From a virus, in IMG/VR virus record IMGVR_UViG_3300037246_001365, positions 1 through 32,526 of that record: a stretch of 32,526 bases of DNA; one strand, given 5' to 3'. This document shows positions 320 to 28,367 of the stretch, piece after piece (position 1 is the stretch's first letter; each line of letters starts with the position of its first letter). Position numbers and translations under genes: made by a program. Below the pieces are notes generated by a model. It worked only from the letters and a program-made list of their open reading frames with translations, searched no databases and had not been told where the DNA came from.

Positions 320-2764
320 TTAATTACTAATTACTTCCTCAACAACACAAGCCCCGCAAGAAATAAGCCCATCTTGCAACTCATTATTTTCATTATAAAC
401 CTTATGCTTTTGGCCCAAAAATTCGGAGCCGCAACAATCACACACATTTACAAATTCTTTGTATTTATACCAAGCCCAACCGTTTTTATAATTCCTTAGT
501 TTTTGATAAGTAAAGAATTGATTCTTTTCGGTGAATTTATATAAAATCCAACCCATTTTAAAGCCTTTGGCAATACGATAATTCTCAAGCTCTTCTACAG
601 TGGCAGCATCAAGCCATTCTTTTTGCTCCTTTGGGTTTAATCGCTGCAATATGATTTCCATTTGCTCAACTGAAGTTGCAGGGTATTCAAAACCGCAATA
701 TTTACATTTCTTAGAACCTGCTGGAATAAGAGCCTTACAATTAGGGCATTCTTTTATAATTGCCGGGCCTTGTTTTTTCTTTTTCTTTTTCGGTGGCAAA
801 AGAGACCATTCACGATCAGAACACCAGAATTCATGTCTGTTGATATTACCTCCACAATCAATAATATTGAAATGATCAAGGCCTTCGAAAATCCTAGAGC
901 CGCGCCCACACATCTGAAGAAAAAGAGTAATTCGCATAGTAGCCCGAAATAGTATTATTGTTTCAATACTTGGCTCATCGTAGCCAGTTGTAAGGATATC
1001 AACAGAGCATAATACCAAAAACTTACCTTGTTTAAAATCTTCAAGGATCTGATCCCTATCTGTCGATTCAGCATCGATTGACCTGGCAGAAATGCCAACT
1101 TTTAAAAATTCATCTCTTACCCGTTCAGAATCTTTGACAGAAGATGCAAACAAGAGGGCTTTTGTGTTTGGTGTTAATTTTTGATAATTTTCAACTACAT
1201 TACTAAATACTTGATTCTTATCATAGTATTCAGAAATAGCCTTTTCATCGAATTCGCCACTCTTTAATTTAACTTGAGAGAAATCTAATTGCAAGCCATA
1301 GTACACAGCTGGCAATAGAAATTTTTGCTCTATGAGATCTGCGATTGGTACTCCTTCAATAATACATTCGTAGTAGTCAGATAAAGGACTTTTAAAACCG
1401 GCTCGATCTGGTGTGGCTGTTGCTCCTATGACATATTGATTAGGTGTTAATGCTGCAAAAATCTTATCAAAACTACGTTTATGGCAATTATGCACTAATA
1501 CACCATTAGCAAAATAATTATTATTATCTTCTATTTCTAAATTATAGACAATATTTCCTTTGCTACCATCTTCACATTTTCCATGATTGCCTGATTTGTA
1601 TATGTTAATACTAGATACCCTTTCGAATCTAATAAAATTATCTTTCTTGAATCTGCTTTTTTTACTTTTAAGCTTGAATGAGATCCACCATTTATTTCTA
1701 TTAATATTTTTCTTTCTGGGTTTCCAATATCTATTTTGTAGTGATAAGGCAAGTAACCATTTCCAGTTATTATAATTAATTCTGGAAACCATCCATTTCC
1801 TAACTCTGCTAATAAAGCTTTTTGCGGCTGAGTTAATACACGACCATTTCCACCTTGAATCTTTGGCTTGTGTCCAATTCTCTTTAATGTATCTGATACT
1901 TTTTTTCTTGTTTCTGGGTTTGACATTGGATTTTTCAATCTCATCCTTTTTGATGATAAAGTCCCTGTGTAATCCCAAACACAACGTCTTGAGCAAAATA
2001 CTTTTCCATTTTTTTTCTTTTTCCGTTTTAGTATTAGCATTTTTTTTCGACCAATATCTTTTAATGTTATTTCTTTTTTGCAGAAATGGCAAAATTCTGA
2101 ACTTACATCTTTGTGTTTTAAAATGTGACCTGACATATATATAATCATTTAATTTAACATCCTTTGCGGATACATACCCTTTATTTTTCACAAATATAGG
2201 ATGTTCTTTTGTGCAATGCAAAACAACATGCAGGTACTTTAATGACACCATGTCACTAAACGACTCTTTTTCAAACTTATGCAATACCTTTTTTTGCTCT
2301 ATTTTTTTTGTATTATGATTAAAACTGTCCACAAAATCACCAACTTTTATATCCTTTATGTCAATTTCGCCGATCTTAGTTTCGGCAGGGAAACATTCAT
2401 CAAAAACAATGAGCTTAAAGCCCTGTATGAATTCTACATAACCTGGCTTTTGCAGCCGCCTCTTAATAGTTTCCGACATTGCTACGCACAATGTACCATT
2501 TGGAATAGTTTTTTGCTTGGCGGTCAGAAAAGAGGATGTTAACCCAAACTTTAAAAAAGTACTTCCAGCTTGCTTTAATAATTCTTTACGATCTGTTATG
2601 ATTAATACCGAATTACCATTTTCGATGGCTTGTTTTGCCATGAAAGTAAACATTACGGTTTTACCTCCCCCGGTTGCAAGCTGCATGATCAAGCGCCTAA
2701 TCTTAGATACCCATGCCTTTTTAATTGACTTGATTTGATCGAATTGATACCACCTTAATTTCAT
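320..2764 (-). CDS. SF2 DEAD/DEAH-type helicase interrupted by an intein
   Basis: 814 residues as translated and 511 after intein removal. Extein motifs in order: a Q-motif-like start (RWYQFDQIKSI), Walker A LATGGGKT (29-36), motif Ia around TDRK (57-60), motif II D122-E123 joined to C427-H428 (DECH once spliced), motif III GATATPDR (447-454), and the RecA2 domain with CSVDILTTGYDEP and motif VI QMCGRGSR. The C-terminus has a CPNCK...CKYC zinc ribbon (673-690), then a CDCC...CGAC cysteine set (775-806). This is the phage 'type III restriction/Rad25-like' helicase layout, an ATP-dependent DNA translocase probably used in replication or recombination. The intein sits inside the catalytic motif, so the helicase should be inactive until spliced. 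It overlaps the upstream gene by 4 bases (ATGA-type). Confidence 0.9.
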   Translation of the reverse strand: MKLRWYQFDQIKSIKKAWVSKIRRLIMQLATGGGKTVMFTFMAKQAIENGNSVLIITDRKELLKQAGSTFLKFGLTSSFLTAKQKTIPNGTLCVAMSETIKRRLQKPGYVEFIQGFKLIVFDECFPAETKIGEIDIKDIKVGDFVDSFNHNTKKIEQKKVLHKFEKESFSDMVSLKYLHVVLHCTKEHPIFVKNKGYVSAKDVKLNDYIYVRSHFKTQRCKFRILPFLQKRNNIKRYWSKKNANTKTEKEKKWKSILLKTLCLGLHRDFIIKKDEIEKSNVKPRNKKKSIRYIKENWTQAKDSRWKWSCINSAAKSFISRVRKWMVSRINYNNWKWLLALSLQNRYWKPRKKNINRNKWWISFKLKSKKSRFKKDNFIRFERVSSINIYKSGNHGKCEDGSKGNIVYNLEIEDNNNYFANGVLVHNCHKRSFDKIFAALTPNQYVIGATATPDRAGFKSPLSDYYECIIEGVPIADLIEQKFLLPAVYYGLQLDFSQVKLKSGEFDEKAISEYYDKNQVFSNVVENYQKLTPNTKALLFASSVKDSERVRDEFLKVGISARSIDAESTDRDQILEDFKQGKFLVLCSVDILTTGYDEPSIETIILFRATMRITLFLQMCGRGSRIFEGLDHFNIIDCGGNINRHEFWCSDREWSLLPPKKKKKKQGPAIIKECPNCKALIPAGSKKCKYCGFEYPATSVEQMEIILQRLNPKEQKEWLDAATVEELENYRIAKGFKMGWILYKFTEKNQFFTYQKLRNYKNGWAWYKYKEFVNVCDCCGSEFLGQKHKVYNENNELQDGLISCGACVVEEVISN
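1487..2395 (-). mobile_element. Intein inserted in helicase motif II (DE^CH)
   Basis: A 303-residue in-frame insertion, helicase residues 124-426. Block A starts at the nucleophile Cys124 (CFPAETKIGEID). Block B is CTKEHPIF with the conserved Thr and His (185, 188). Block F is YNLEIEDNNNYFA (407-419) and block G is GVLVHN followed by the +1 extein Cys427. The penultimate His425 and terminal Asn426 are present, so class 1 splicing residues are complete. Removal gives FDECHKRSFD, restoring a normal DECH helicase motif, and the +1 Cys is the motif's own cysteine. Residues from about 206 to about 405, read in this frame, are lysine/tryptophan-rich and resemble no endonuclease domain. That DNA encodes a nuclease in another frame (1537-2148). 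Confidence 0.92.
1537..2148 (-). CDS. Homing endonuclease (NUMOD3 + Vsr-like EDxHD nuclease) nested out of frame inside the intein
   Basis: A 203-residue ORF on the same strand as the helicase but in another frame, lying wholly inside the intein between blocks B and F. It has a zinc-binding region (C20-x2-C23, C52-x3-C56), a NUMOD3 DNA-binding motif (about 71-93, NPMSNPETRKKVSDTLKR), and a C-terminal Vsr/PD-(D/E)XK-like nuclease domain. Candidate catalytic residues follow the EDxHD pattern: E123 (FPEL), D140 (KIDIGNP), E151/H157 (IEINGGSH) and D166 (ADSRK), then the LLDSKGYLVL strand. NUMOD3 and this nuclease fold are known in intron and intein homing enzymes. The start ATG is preceded by AAAGGATG at about 13-20 bases, a plausible ribosome site; Met5 is an alternative start. 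Translation is presumably independent of the helicase. Its stop codon falls at the beginning of intein block F. Confidence 0.85.
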   Translation of the reverse strand: MIIYMSGHILKHKDVSSEFCHFCKKEITLKDIGRKKMLILKRKKKKNGKVFCSRRCVWDYTGTLSSKRMRLKNPMSNPETRKKVSDTLKRIGHKPKIQGGNGRVLTQPQKALLAELGNGWFPELIIITGNGYLPYHYKIDIGNPERKILIEINGGSHSSLKVKKADSRKIILLDSKGYLVLTYTNQAIMENVKMVAKEILSII

Positions 2765-3138
2765 AATTCTATCAGTTCCCTTTTAGCATCCCTTTTCCTA
2801 TCAAACCCAATCGAAACCGTAATAGTAAACGAAGCCAATAAACCACCGTACAAACACCTTTGTAAGTATTTATTGTTTTGTGGATGAGTGAAAGAATACA
2901 GATAACTAGTCAATAATGCTGCTCCAGTACCTATAAGCCTGCATTGATTTTGAGTAAAATTTGTTTTTTTGAATACAATTTCATAGGTGATTAAATAAGC
3001 ACCTGAAGATACTGCAAAGCTTTTCAAGAGCGGAGGGAAAAAGTCCGCTGAATTATCAATAAGCTCTATGTCTTTTGTTTGTGCGTTGAGTGTAAATACA
3101 AACAACATTAAAATTAAAATTAGTTGTAAATTTTTCAT
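2761..3138 (-). CDS. Small exported or membrane protein, function unknown
   Basis: 125 residues. The N-terminus is a clear signal peptide or membrane anchor (MKNLQLILILMLFVFTLNAQ, with possible cleavage after the ALNAQ-like site). Two or three further hydrophobic stretches follow around residues 40-55, 66-82 and 92-110, and the tail is basic then acidic (DRKRDAKRELIEL). No family was recognised. It is coupled to both neighbours by short overlaps (4 bases each), so it is co-translated with the helicase and the cysteine-rich protein upstream. A host-envelope role, such as superinfection exclusion, is possible but nothing in the sequence shows it. Confidence 0.7.
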   Translation of the reverse strand: MKNLQLILILMLFVFTLNAQTKDIELIDNSADFFPPLLKSFAVSSGAYLITYEIVFKKTNFTQNQCRLIGTGAALLTSYLYSFTHPQNNKYLQRCLYGGLLASFTITVSIGFDRKRDAKRELIEL

Positions 3139-3494
3139 GATTCTTTTTTTAAGTTTTTTAATATACTTCTCATGTAATTGGCGCGGGCCTTGAAAGCTAC
3201 TTTCAGCTCTTGGGGTTTTTCTGCTTCAATTATTGCATCATAAGTCGATTCAGCATCACCACGACAACAATAATTTAACAATTTATCATCCATTACCTCC
3301 GAATCAAATGCTTTACAATAAACACACTTATAACAATTTACTTTAATGGGTTTGCATAATGTGCATGAATTGTGAGTACCGAAACCTGTTATTGAGTTTA
3401 TTACAAATCCATCACTAACATGATTTTCAATTTCTTCAACTGTAATACTCTCATATCTAAGTATCAGCTCTTTAAATTCTTTTAAATTCTCCAT
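3135..3494 (-). CDS. Cysteine-rich hypothetical protein
   Basis: 119 residues. The middle has closely spaced cysteines (CTLC, NCYKCVYC, then NYCC about 25 residues later), consistent with one or two metal sites. The flanks are charged and helical, and the C-terminus is basic (KARANYMRSILKNLKK). I do not recognise the family. It begins with MENLKEF, the type of start shared by several small genes here (3494, 7172, 7812, 19582). It overlaps the next gene by 4 bases. Confidence 0.65.
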   Translation of the reverse strand: MENLKEFKELILRYESITVEEIENHVSDGFVINSITGFGTHNSCTLCKPIKVNCYKCVYCKAFDSEVMDDKLLNYCCRGDAESTYDAIIEAEKPQELKVAFKARANYMRSILKNLKKES

Positions 3495-25333: not shown

Positions 25334-26035
25334 TTATTTTAAATATCTTGCTATTTGTTTTTGTGCATGTTTCTTAAAATTACTATTTAACAATTTAGCA
25401 CTTTCTAGAGCTGCATTATTTACAAATGGATGCTTGTGTTTTAATTCTATTTTTCTATTCTCTTTATAACTAGCAATTGGTGTCATTGCCGGTATTTTTT
25501 TATTTTTTTTCGTCTTACCTATTTTAACCAAGACACCTCTATTGTTTTTCTTAATCAACAAGGGTCTTTGTTTATCTCTTGCCTTTGAAACTCCCACAAA
25601 AAAAGATTTTCCCTTTTCGGCTATAATTGGCTTCTTGCTTCTTTCTGTTAAGTACGAACTCTTAACCAATCCTTTTGATGTTCGTTGATTTTTAGCAGGC
25701 GCATAAGATTTATTATGCAGTGTCCCTGCAAATTGTTGCTGTGCTATTTCAGTACTTGCAACCGATTTACTATCCATGCCTTTCACCATCCCGGCAACGG
25801 CTTTCATTTTTGAAATATCAAAACCTTTTGCTGGTGAATAACCTGAGAATTTACTAAAAAAACTAGCTTTTTTTACGTCAAATTCTTTTCTAGCATGTTT
25901 TTTTAACGTTCTGAATTTAACGTCTTTCGCTGAATCAGTCAAGGTGAATCTGACTGCATTAGGTAGTGCTGATCTATGTAAGCGGCTGAGCTTATGACTG
26001 AAATCGATTAGCTTATCACCTTTGTACATTAACAT
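25334..26035 (-). CDS. Basic tail-completion-like protein (prophage minor tail protein Z-like)
   Basis: 233 residues, very basic (many Lys, Arg, Ser, Ala). NAVRFTLTDSAKDVKFRTLK, KHARKEFDVKKASFFSKF and MKAVAGMVKG resemble GPZ-type minor tail proteins, in which an Ala-rich 'alN.ta...T' helix precedes 'v....i..r'. The C-terminus has KHPFVNNAALESAKLLNSNF, common to tail-completion proteins of the HK97-gp10 type. Its position between NHL proteins and baseplate genes is unusual for GPZ, so the family call is tentative. It overlaps the NHL gene by 1 base. Confidence 0.5.
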   Translation of the reverse strand: MLMYKGDKLIDFSHKLSRLHRSALPNAVRFTLTDSAKDVKFRTLKKHARKEFDVKKASFFSKFSGYSPAKGFDISKMKAVAGMVKGMDSKSVASTEIAQQQFAGTLHNKSYAPAKNQRTSKGLVKSSYLTERSKKPIIAEKGKSFFVGVSKARDKQRPLLIKKNNRGVLVKIGKTKKNKKIPAMTPIASYKENRKIELKHKHPFVNNAALESAKLLNSNFKKHAQKQIARYLK

Positions 26036-27195
26036 TATATATATTTATTTACAAGATTAGTACCTGTAGAATTACCAATATACATTTTATCACCCACATT
26101 GCAAATTGCATGCGGTTGTGTATTTGTTGAAAATTGATCAATATAATTTCCGTTAAAATCGAAAATCTGTACTCTATTATTAAAAAGATCACATACATAA
26201 ATTAACCCATTATATTCGACTATGCTTCTAGGCGTATTAAATTGACCATCTCCTGAGCCATTACTTCCAAATTTAAAAAGAAAAGTGCCGTTTTTATCAA
26301 ATACTTGAATTCTGAAGTTGTTTAAATCGGATACATAAAGATTGTTGTTGATGACATATATTTTTTCTGGTGTATTAAATTGACTATCGCCAGCCCCAGG
26401 GCTTCCGAATTTAGATACGAAATTCCCGTTTAAATCAAATTTTTGGACTCTTTGATTAGTTCCTCCATCACAAACCCACATATTTACATCATCTGTAGCA
26501 ATCCCCTGTGTTTGTGAAAATTGGCCATCACCAGACCCATTTGATCCAAATTGAGAAATATAATTACCACTTAAATCAAATTTCTGAACCCTTTGATTGT
26601 TTGCATCACCTACATATATGAAATTATTTGTAATTGCTATTCCTGTGGTAAACGCAAATTGACCATTTCCAGATCCACTAGTACCAAATTTTAAAATGTA
26701 ATTTCCATTCAAATCTAACTTTTGAACTCGATCATTTGAGGTATCAACTATATATAATTCATCATTAAATTCTATTATTTCTCTTGGAAAATTAAATTCG
26801 CCATCACCAACACCAGAGCTTCCAAAAGAATTAAGAAGATTAGCTGAAAATTCTCCCCTCACAATATACCGACTTACCACTGCATTAGTACCTTGTATCG
26901 AGACAGAAGCATACCACCCAGATGGTATATAATCACTACCTATCATTATAACAGTAAAAAAATTGGTGTCAATATCCGAAATGGTGTCACCATCTTGAAT
27001 TATATCATCATTATTAACGATATAAACAAAACCATTATTCAAGGTTTGTATGTTTACAGCGTGGTTTAAGACTGTTTTTATAGATGAGAATTTTTTTGAT
27101 GATTCAGCAATACGCCAATCATTCATAACCTTAAGCTTTTGCTCATTTGTTAATTCATCTATTTTATATGCTTTTTTTGGCGTTATTATTAGCAT
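26035..27195 (-). CDS. NHL-repeat beta-propeller tail protein, copy 2
   Basis: 386 residues. The N-terminal 120 residues include SSIKTVLNHAVNIQTLNNGF and DYIPSGWYASVSIQG, then five to six NHL repeats of about 44 residues (for example DNRVQ-like 'NNQRVQKFDLSGNYISQFG'). NHL domains are six-bladed propellers that bind proteins, RNA or sugars. In a phage tail operon they are candidates for receptor-binding or tail appendage proteins. The N-terminal module is nearly identical in DNA to that of the next gene (26862-27087 vs 28034-28259), but the propellers differ. The last repeat ends as TNLVNKYI. Confidence 0.75.
   Translation of the reverse strand: MLIITPKKAYKIDELTNEQKLKVMNDWRIAESSKKFSSIKTVLNHAVNIQTLNNGFVYIVNNDDIIQDGDTISDIDTNFFTVIMIGSDYIPSGWYASVSIQGTNAVVSRYIVRGEFSANLLNSFGSSGVGDGEFNFPREIIEFNDELYIVDTSNDRVQKLDLNGNYILKFGTSGSGNGQFAFTTGIAITNNFIYVGDANNQRVQKFDLSGNYISQFGSNGSGDGQFSQTQGIATDDVNMWVCDGGTNQRVQKFDLNGNFVSKFGSPGAGDSQFNTPEKIYVINNNLYVSDLNNFRIQVFDKNGTFLFKFGSNGSGDGQFNTPRSIVEYNGLIYVCDLFNNRVQIFDFNGNYIDQFSTNTQPHAICNVGDKMYIGNSTGTNLVNKYI
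26862..27087 (-). repeat. 226-bp duplicated segment, copy A (in NHL gene)
   Basis: Identical to 28034-28259 by eye except for one base (27064 G versus 28236 T), which changes Asn to Lys in VLNHAV. The flanking propeller DNA is diverged, so this block was duplicated or converted more recently than the rest of the genes. Confidence 0.9.
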
Positions 27196-28367
27196 TATAT
27201 AAATTTTTGAATTCGGTCATTATCATCAGAGGTGTATAGAATTTTGTCTTTCACACAGACAAAAAGCACGTTGTCGAATTGGCCACTACTGACTCCAAAG
27301 CTCCCAAATTTTAAAATAAAATTACCTACTAGGTCAAACTTCTGAATATTATTATTTGTAGAATCAGTAACAAAAATATTAGTTTCATTAATACAAATAC
27401 CACGAACATTATTAAATTCACCATCACCACTACCAATTGACCCAAATTGATCAACATAAACCCCTGATAAATCAAATATCTGAACTCTATTATTGTTCTT
27501 GTCTGTAACAAAAATATTAGTTTCATTAGCATCTAAATCTTCTGGTGCATCAAAAAGTCCATCTGTGCTTCCTGTTGACCCAAATTGATCAACATAAACC
27601 CCCGCTAAGTCAAATATCTGAACTCGGTCATTACCTCTATCTGTAATAAAAATATTAGTACTATTTACAAATATTCCTCTTGGTGCATCAAAAAGCCCAT
27701 TTGTTGTTCCAAAACTCCCAAATTTTGAAACAAAACTACCTACTAAATCAAATTTTTGAACTCTATTATTACCTGAATCTACAACAAAAATATTAGTATC
27801 ATTTACATATATACCTACTGGATTTGTAAAAAGCCCATCTGTAATACCAACACTTCCAAATTGTGAAACATAATTACCGTTTAGGTCAAATATCTGAACT
27901 CTATTATTGTCTCTATCAACAGCAAAGATATTAGTTTTATTAATCGCAATGCCTCGTGGTAAATTAAATTCACCATTTGATGAACCGGTTGATCCCCACT
28001 TCTTTAAAAAATCACCATTAATATCATCAAAAGCAATATACCGACTTACCACTGCATTAGTACCTTGTATCGAGACAGAAGCATACCACCCAGATGGTAT
28101 ATAATCACTACCTATCATTATAACAGTAAAAAAATTGGTGTCAATATCCGAAATGGTGTCACCATCTTGAATTATATCATCATTATTAACGATATAAACA
28201 AAACCATTATTCAAGGTTTGTATGTTTACAGCGTGTTTTAAGACTGTTTTTATAGATGAATATAATAATTTATACTTATTAATATCTACTGAATTTTGCA
28301 CTAATAGAATTTGAGCTGCACTCAATTCGTCAATCTTTTCCGCTAATTCTGGCGTATCTATACTCAT
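27195..28367 (-). CDS. NHL-repeat beta-propeller tail protein, copy 1
   Basis: 390 residues. MSIDTPELAEKIDELSAAQI leads into the shared N-terminal module, then six NHL repeats from about residue 118. Each contains 'RGI..N.TNIFV.D..NNRVQIFDL.G.YV.QFGS'. Repeats two to five are highly alike, with Asn-Thr-Asn-Ile-Phe in most. A closed six-bladed propeller is therefore plausible. It follows the gp48-like gene, the site where Mu-type phages carry their tail-fibre genes, so receptor recognition is likely. It overlaps the next copy by 1 base. Confidence 0.78.
   Translation of the reverse strand: MSIDTPELAEKIDELSAAQILLVQNSVDINKYKLLYSSIKTVLKHAVNIQTLNNGFVYIVNNDDIIQDGDTISDIDTNFFTVIMIGSDYIPSGWYASVSIQGTNAVVSRYIAFDDINGDFLKKWGSTGSSNGEFNLPRGIAINKTNIFAVDRDNNRVQIFDLNGNYVSQFGSVGITDGLFTNPVGIYVNDTNIFVVDSGNNRVQKFDLVGSFVSKFGSFGTTNGLFDAPRGIFVNSTNIFITDRGNDRVQIFDLAGVYVDQFGSTGSTDGLFDAPEDLDANETNIFVTDKNNNRVQIFDLSGVYVDQFGSIGSGDGEFNNVRGICINETNIFVTDSTNNNIQKFDLVGNFILKFGSFGVSSGQFDNVLFVCVKDKILYTSDDNDRIQKFI
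28034..28259 (-). repeat. 226-bp duplicated segment, copy B (in NHL gene)
   Basis: Partner of 26862-27087, offset by 1172 bases. It encodes the module from about SSIKTVLKHAV to VSIQGTNAVVSRYI that joins the N-terminus to the propeller. Confidence 0.9.

What the first reader, a model, noticed from the sequence alone, without database searches (positions are those of the whole stretch)
1537..2148. Homing endonuclease nested out of frame inside an intein
Seen in sequence: the intein of the helicase (1487-2395) lacks any endonuclease domain in its own frame. The same DNA, in another frame of the same strand, encodes a complete 203-residue NUMOD3/EDxHD-type nuclease. Both frames are open across about 204 codons in AT-rich DNA; in a checked segment (1741-1800) the third forward frame meets a stop. 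Known inteins usually carry the endonuclease as an in-frame domain. Here one DNA stretch appears to serve as both the intein linker and a separately translated nuclease gene. Selection must then keep the host frame stop-free so the helicase is still made.
Basis: partly seen in the sequence, partly recalled or inferred. Interest (0 to 1): 0.92.

Follow-up and report, generated by a model that had tools for sequence, protein, structure and literature searches.

The report
Endonuclease gene overlapping an intein
In a large family of phage helicase and packaging genes, a self-removing protein insert (an intein) carries its DNA-cutting "homing" enzyme in a shifted reading frame of the same DNA, so one stretch of DNA spells two proteins; this window is one of more than 100 such cases found, and the arrangement seems also to have given rise to split inteins.

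Summary
Confirmed and extended. On the minus strand, an 814-aa helicase ORF (2764-320) holds a class-1-like intein (2395-1487) in its DEAH box. A complete 203-codon EDxHD/DUF559 nuclease ORF (2148-1537) lies inside it in the +1 frame. This is not an indel artefact. Nuclease-first and intein-first searches gave 112 distinct loci (90% nt clusters) with both intein halves. All 111 with recognisable nuclease sequence have it at +1; none is in frame or at +2. In 103 the intein frame is fully open: 0 stops observed against 884 expected after synonymous shuffling. Four loci, one clade, have 25-35 stops there (the chance level) and are split-intein "fractured" genes. Every intein-frame stop can be removed by a silent T-to-C change at the nuclease wobble base; at such sites the open loci use T 0 times in 1580. 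The nuclease C-terminus and the intein's C-terminal splicing half share about 105 nt, conserved in both readings. Mini-inteins still carry the nuclease tail as a fossil. Homing signs: inteins far more alike than their flanks, plus empty alleles. Expression, splicing and cleavage are inferred. The closest report, the ShiLan out-of-frame HNH, lacks an intein; one relevant preprint could not be read.

The parts
320..2764 (-). Host gene: SF2 (DEAH-type) helicase precursor, 814 aa, interrupted by the intein
   Evidence: ORF; ResIII, Helicase_C and Intein_splicing matches; intein-free homologues
2396..2764 (-). N-extein, ends in ...VFDE
   Evidence: alignment to intein-free phage helicases
1487..2395 (-). 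Intein, 303 aa, host frame; Cys1 at 2395-2393, Asn303 at 1489-1487
   Evidence: PF14890; invariant C1, T62, H65, N303 in 41 relatives; HINT fold hits
2126..2395 (-). N-terminal HINT half (intein residues 1-90)
   Evidence: AlphaFold2 pLDDT 87-98 per 10-residue block
1643..2125 (-). Host-frame linker (intein residues 91-251), predicted disordered; by-product of nuclease coding
   Evidence: pLDDT 38-52 over nearly all of it; 21% family identity against 43% in the nuclease frame in the middle region
1487..1642 (-). C-terminal HINT half (intein residues 252-303)
   Evidence: pLDDT 83-96 except the loop around 271-280
1537..2148 (-). Nested EDxHD/DUF559 homing endonuclease gene, 203 aa, +1 frame of the host; ATG 2148-2146, alternative ATG 2136-2134
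   Evidence: DUF559; profile hit to I-Bth0305I 3r3p; fold hit; pLDDT 89
1981..2091 (-). Nuclease Cys4 segment (C20, C23, C52, C56), probable zinc finger
   Evidence: nearly invariant Cys in alignments; metal binding inferred
1540..1791 (-). Nuclease catalytic domain (about residues 120-203) with invariant D140, E151, H157, D166
   Evidence: alignment; structure
1537..1642 (-). Dual-coded stretch in which both the nuclease C-terminus and the C-terminal HINT half are folded and conserved
   Evidence: nuclease/C-block overlap of 55-139 nt in all loci with a C block; 40% and 42% identity in the two frames
2160..2165 (-). Weak Shine-Dalgarno-like AAAGGA upstream of the nested ATG (uncertain; Bacteroidota-type phages often do not use SD)
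   Evidence: family-wide SD enrichment
320..1486 (-). C-extein, begins with Cys+1: CHKRSFDKI...

Best explanation
This is a mobile intein in the DEAH box of a phage helicase whose homing endonuclease is a separate, overlapping gene in the +1 frame of the intein DNA. Ribosomes reading the helicase frame pass through the whole intein; its two HINT halves fold together around a mostly disordered 'shadow' linker and splice out, leaving an intact DECH helicase. Other ribosomes start at an internal ATG near the end of the N-terminal HINT half and make the free EDxHD endonuclease, which cuts intein-free alleles in co-infecting phages so that the intein is copied in. Selection at protein level acts on the nuclease in the middle, on both proteins in the last ~105 nt, and on the host frame of the middle almost only to avoid stops. 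The +1 phase makes that possible: every host-frame stop begins at a nuclease wobble base, so a silent T-to-C change always removes it. Shown here by sequence: anatomy, conservation, phase, stop avoidance, selection pattern, mobility signature. Inferred: splicing, internal initiation, DNA cleavage and homing.
For: Phase: nuclease at +1 in all 111 distinct clusters with nuclease sequence; 103 full length with open host frame. Stops: 0 observed, 884 expected after synonymous shuffling; third frame 1564 against 1447. Wobble: 0 T and 1580 C where T would make a stop, 3740 T and 3054 C elsewhere; split clade 116 T and 20 C at such sites. Selection: middle region dN/dS about 0.02-0.2 in the nuclease frame, near or above 1 in the host frame; in the overlap both frames are conserved. 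Folds: nuclease pLDDT 89, best PDB match I-Bth0305I; HINT halves folded, linker not. Initiation: SD-like motif before 31 of 56 nested ATGs against 8.7 expected. Mobility: intein more alike than both flanks in all 40 closest pairs listed; empty and mini-intein alleles in close Vibrio phages. Intein-free homologues of the window helicase have an intact DECH.
Against: No product was observed: no proteomics, ribosome profiling, splicing or cleavage data. This window and its nearest relatives lack a strong SD, so the start codon is inferred. A +1 frameshift is not strictly excluded. Loci within the family are related by descent, so they are not fully independent tests of the phase; the +1 phase may be common ancestry as well as coding constraint. 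The searches used conserved family motifs and could miss differently arranged relatives.
Confidence: 0.86

Rival explanations
1. The nuclease is an ordinary in-frame intein domain, and two compensating sequencing or assembly indels only make it look out of frame.
For: Metagenome assemblies can carry indels; most inteins have the endonuclease in frame (established knowledge).
Against: Same +1 phase in 111 distinct clusters, including isolate genomes from several laboratories; HINT and nuclease are both conserved over the same bases; the wobble pattern needs both frames to be real.
Confidence: 0.005
2. The anatomy is as described, but the nuclease is made by programmed +1 ribosomal frameshifting near the end of the N-terminal HINT half, giving an N-extein/HINT-N/nuclease fusion.
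For: The phase is always +1; in GC-rich loci the nuclease frame is open for some tens of codons upstream of the Cys motif.
Against: 71 of 74 loci keep an in-frame ATG before the Cys motif; an upstream stop in the nuclease frame often lies only a few codons before that ATG; SD-like motifs are enriched before the ATG.
Confidence: 0.08
3. The overlap is a relic: the window's nuclease is no longer expressed or active, and the frame is open by inheritance.
For: Some relatives are eroded (L155, L157) or have lost the nuclease body (L122, L166).
Against: The window copy is full length with all invariant residues, and nuclease-frame dN/dS is low in close relatives.
Confidence: 0.05
4. The host gene is in fact a split (trans-splicing) system, and the long read-through ORF is not used.
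For: A related clade is split, with the same nuclease between the halves.
Against: Where the frame is really unused it has 25-35 stops, the shuffled expectation; here it has none.
Confidence: 0.01

Closest known systems
ShiLan-type out-of-frame HNH insertions in mycobacteriophage methylase genes (Arsenault, Gosselin, Gogarten 2025, PMC11855218)
   Same: A mobile endonuclease in another frame of the same strand; host frame kept free of stops; disjunct distribution; expression unexplained.
   Different: ShiLan has no detectable intein or intron and is thought to stay in the protein, and its nuclease is HNH in the 'third frame'. Here a complete HINT intein surrounds an EDxHD nuclease at +1, and the nuclease end overlaps splicing-domain coding.
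Fractured genes: split inteins with a free-standing Vsr-like/EDxHD endonuclease between the halves (Dassa et al. 2009, NAR 37:2560; known to me from its abstract and citations, full text not readable here)
   Same: Same endonuclease superfamily, HINT halves on both sides, phage DNA-metabolism genes; four relatives found here (L005, L040, L044, L057) have this layout.
   Different: In the window and 102 other clusters the host ORF is unbroken, so the intein is contiguous and the nuclease gene overlaps it.
EDxHD homing endonuclease I-Bth0305I (PDB 3r3p)
   Same: Nuclease fold and active-site arrangement.
   Different: I-Bth0305I is intron-encoded; this one is encoded inside an intein, in another frame.
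Classical LAGLIDADG inteins (e.g. PI-SceI, Mtu RecA)
   Same: HINT splicing domain with an endonuclease coded between its two halves; invade conserved ATPase motifs.
   Different: The classical endonuclease is an in-frame domain made with the intein; here it is a separate overlapping gene.

Membership tests
Intein (HINT protein-splicing element, class 1) | Cys/Ser/Thr at position 1, block-B TxxH, C-terminal His-Asn, Cys/Ser/Thr at +1 | tested here: met
   C1, T62, H65, H302, N303, then C+1 in the window; C1, T62, H65, N303 invariant in 41 relatives
Intein (HINT protein-splicing element, class 1) | HINT fold, in-frame insertion in a conserved host motif, intein-free homologues exist | tested here: met
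   fold; DE|CH site and intein-free helicases
Intein (HINT protein-splicing element, class 1) | Protein splicing activity | not testable with these tools
   needs expression of the precursor
EDxHD (Vsr-like/DUF559) homing endonuclease | Sequence profile and fold of the family with conserved acidic and His residues | tested here: met
   DUF559; 3r3p profile hit and fold hit; D140, E151, H157, D166 invariant (assignment of the individual motif letters is inferred)
EDxHD (Vsr-like/DUF559) homing endonuclease | Site-specific cleavage and homing | not testable with these tools
   indirect support only: intein more alike than its flanks, empty alleles
NUMOD3-bearing endonuclease | Match to the NUMOD3 profile | tested here: not met
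   no NUMOD3 among Pfam hits; one structural neighbour in BFVD bears that name
Fractured gene (split intein plus free-standing endonuclease) | Host ORF broken between the intein halves | tested here: not met
   window host frame open; met only in L005/L006, L040, L044, L057/L059
ShiLan-type out-of-frame insertion | Open host frame with an out-of-frame endonuclease | tested here: met
ShiLan-type out-of-frame insertion | HNH nuclease and no splicing domain | tested here: not met
   EDxHD nuclease and full HINT domain
Self-splicing intron | Intron RNA family match | tested here: not met
   no Rfam match in the window

The most novel reading that the evidence does not exclude
A distinct, widespread class of phage inteins in which the endonuclease is always an overlapping +1-frame gene. 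The phase is locked because it alone lets all host-frame stops be removed by silent wobble changes, and the shared C-terminal stretch ties the two genes together. This class is the direct precursor of at least one lineage of split-intein 'fractured' genes: once host-frame stops are tolerated, the same locus becomes a split intein.
Probability: 0.65. Interest if true: 0.9.

Novelty: new variant of a known kind. Interest (0 to 1): 0.87.

Why it matters
It shows a second way for a homing endonuclease to live in an intein: as a separate, overlapping gene instead of a fused domain, which uncouples its expression from the host protein. It offers a simple coding reason for the fixed phase, links contiguous inteins to split inteins through observed intermediates, and explains why gene callers miss the enzyme: in every annotated phage region inspected only the host gene is annotated. 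Cultured carriers exist, so initiation, splicing and homing can be tested directly. It is also an unusually clean natural case of dual coding, because the split clade acts as an internal control.

Tried and rejected
Indel artefact: rejected by relatives. Chance open frame: rejected. Intron: no Rfam match. Bacterial genomes (a narrow pattern) and plasmids gave no relatives, so the family looks viral at this sensitivity. A whole-gene DNA alignment meant to place the empty-site gap failed (MAFFT put the gap at the start); the empty site rests on the protein comparison and the 1068-nt length difference (2699 against 1631 nt). Dassa 2009 and the preprint 10.1101/2025.01.02.630785, 'Actinobacteriophage Inteins... 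Non-Canonical Architecture', are not held, so an earlier description of out-of-frame endonucleases in true inteins cannot be excluded. A genome-relatives search was not possible for a virus record.

Full report
WHAT IS THERE. On the minus strand, a helicase ORF of 814 aa runs from 2764 to 320. It matches ResIII and Helicase_C and, between them, the intein splicing domain. The intein is 2395-1487: C1, block-B T62/H65, terminal His-Asn, then C+1. It splits the DEAH box as DE|CH. Phage helicases without it (Nonlabens P12024L, Flavobacterium lotta8-2, Cellulophaga phi46:1) align across with DECH intact. Inside the intein, the same strand encodes a 203-aa ORF at 2148-1537, one base out of the host frame (2764-2148 = 3x205+1). 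It matches DUF559; with relatives, the profile finds 3hrl (E 3e-11) and I-Bth0305I 3r3p (E 6e-4), and 3r3p is the best solved fold.

IT IS A FAMILY WITH A FIXED PHASE. Nuclease-based searches of viral contigs gave 7 and then 80 loci, and the phage records gave 40 isolates. A search started only from the N-terminal HINT block, blind to the nuclease, gave 80 loci. Together, 159 loci with both intein halves collapse to 112 clusters at 90% nt. The two intein halves are always in the same frame. Where nuclease sequence is recognisable (111 clusters) it is at +1; never in frame, never at +2. Of the 112, 103 are full length with an open host frame, 4 have many host stops, 2 are eroded, 2 are mini-inteins with a nuclease remnant, and 1 (L164) is a mini-intein without nuclease. 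In the tree set of 74, hosts are DExH helicases (58), large terminase (5) and SNF2-like helicases at different sites (7 and 4); the insert sits at or near Walker B (host names were assigned from flanking motifs, not from profile searches). No relatives came from bacterial genomes or plasmids.

SELECTION KEEPS THE HOST FRAME OPEN. Shuffling synonymous codons within each nuclease (same protein, same codon usage) predicts 884 host-frame stops over the 103 open clusters; there are none. The third frame has 1564 against 1447 expected. In this phase every host stop (TAA, TAG, TGA) starts at the third base of a nuclease codon. Since NNT and NNC are always synonymous, a silent T-to-C change removes any of them. 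At codons where T would create a stop, open loci have 0 T and 1580 C; elsewhere 3740 T and 3054 C. In the other shifted phase, Met followed by M, I, T, N or K would make an unavoidable TGA in 97 of 103 nucleases. The fixed phase therefore has a coding reason besides shared descent; the data do not separate the two.

AN INTERNAL CONTROL. In L005/L006, L040, L044 and L057/L059 the host frame between the halves has 25-35 stops, just the shuffled expectation, and T is common at the sensitive wobble sites (116 T, 20 C). These are split inteins with a nuclease between, the 'fractured gene' layout. On the nuclease tree they form one clade (100/100), with two overlapping-type loci, L049 and L041, as nearest relatives (97/86 and 97/96). 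The tree is unrooted, so overlap-to-split is the most economical direction, not a proven one.

TWO PROTEINS FROM THE SAME BASES. The nuclease model is confident (mean pLDDT 89). The intein model has two well-folded HINT halves (about 1-90 and 252-303, except a loop near 271-280) and a linker with block pLDDT of 38-52. The nuclease ends inside the C-terminal HINT half, so about 105 nt (1642-1537) encode folded parts of both. Over the family, mean identity in the middle is 21% in the host frame and 43% in the nuclease frame; in the overlap it is 40% and 42%. Between close relatives the nuclease frame of the middle has dN/dS of about 0.02-0.2, while the host frame is mostly near or above 1, as expected when nuclease-silent changes alter host residues. 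Conserved-looking host-frame residues in the linker (L134, L219, Q220, R233) are probably shadows of nuclease motifs (inference).

FOSSILS. L122 and L166 are mini-inteins whose nuclease body is gone, yet the +1 frame still reads the nuclease tail (GWTVLRFSN..., VLRFKNKQV...; E 5e-6 and 1e-7), because that DNA is also HINT coding; L122 also keeps a CxxC piece of the start. L155 and L157 are partly deleted.

HOW IT IS PROBABLY EXPRESSED. 71 of 74 loci have an in-frame ATG before the Cys motif. Of 56 with an ATG within 25 nt of the N-block end, 31 have an SD-like motif at 4-12 nt, against 8.7 expected. In several loci the motif is GAGG, lying within the host codons of the intein's Asp-Glu-Val motif (sequences). 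This favours internal initiation over frameshifting, but the window and its nearest relatives lack a strong SD, so the start here is inferred.

MOBILITY. In the 40 closest pairs listed (many of them near-copies of a few loci), the intein is more similar than both flanks (L009/L010 95.8% against 76.6% and 75.2%; L140/L141 99.8% against 96.3% and 82.2%). Vibrio phages close to L009 include alleles 1068 nt shorter, without the intein and with DEAHH in place of DE-intein-CHH, and alleles with a nuclease-free mini-intein at the same site. The empty alleles with Ala suggest that the Cys+1 came in with the intein.

ANNOTATION. In the isolate records inspected, only the host ORF is annotated; the nested nuclease is missing.

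NOVELTY. The closest published case in reach is the ShiLan insert, an out-of-frame HNH without a detectable splicing domain (PMC11855218). Fractured genes with the same nuclease superfamily are known (Dassa 2009; not readable here). I found no paper describing a contiguous intein with an overlapping out-of-frame endonuclease, but a 2025 preprint on actinophage inteins with 'non-canonical architecture' could not be read. I therefore file this as a new variant of a known kind.

Noticed in passing
L005/L006 3574-4551, L040 747-1724, L044 548-1525, L057/L059 3577-4554: Split inteins in an SNF2-like helicase with the same nuclease gene between the halves, one clade derived from or sister to the overlapping type.
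   Followed up: yes
L004 about 2440-3460; L172 (Vibrio phage PS65A.1): A second intein, with an in-frame LAGLIDADG-like domain, at the Walker A motif of the same helicase gene; in L172 it sits with a mini-intein at the DEAH box.
   Followed up: partly
L009 against L174, DEAH box: Intein-free Vibrio alleles have DEAHH, intein-bearing ones DE-[intein]-CHH: the Cys+1 needed for splicing seems to have replaced Ala, perhaps by co-conversion.
   Followed up: partly
L175 2382-2629 (Vibrio phage K459): A gene annotated as endonuclease directly follows the helicase that holds a nuclease-free mini-intein; it could be a neighbouring free-standing homing enzyme.
   Followed up: no
L122 4001-4441, L166 2578-3006: Mini-inteins that still read the nuclease tail in the +1 frame because that DNA also encodes the splicing domain.
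   Followed up: yes
window 26035-27195 and 27195-28367, minus strand: Two adjacent ORFs with NHL-like repeats share an almost identical stretch of about 75 residues near the N-terminus, followed by diverged repeats, like duplicated tail-fibre-type genes.
   Followed up: no
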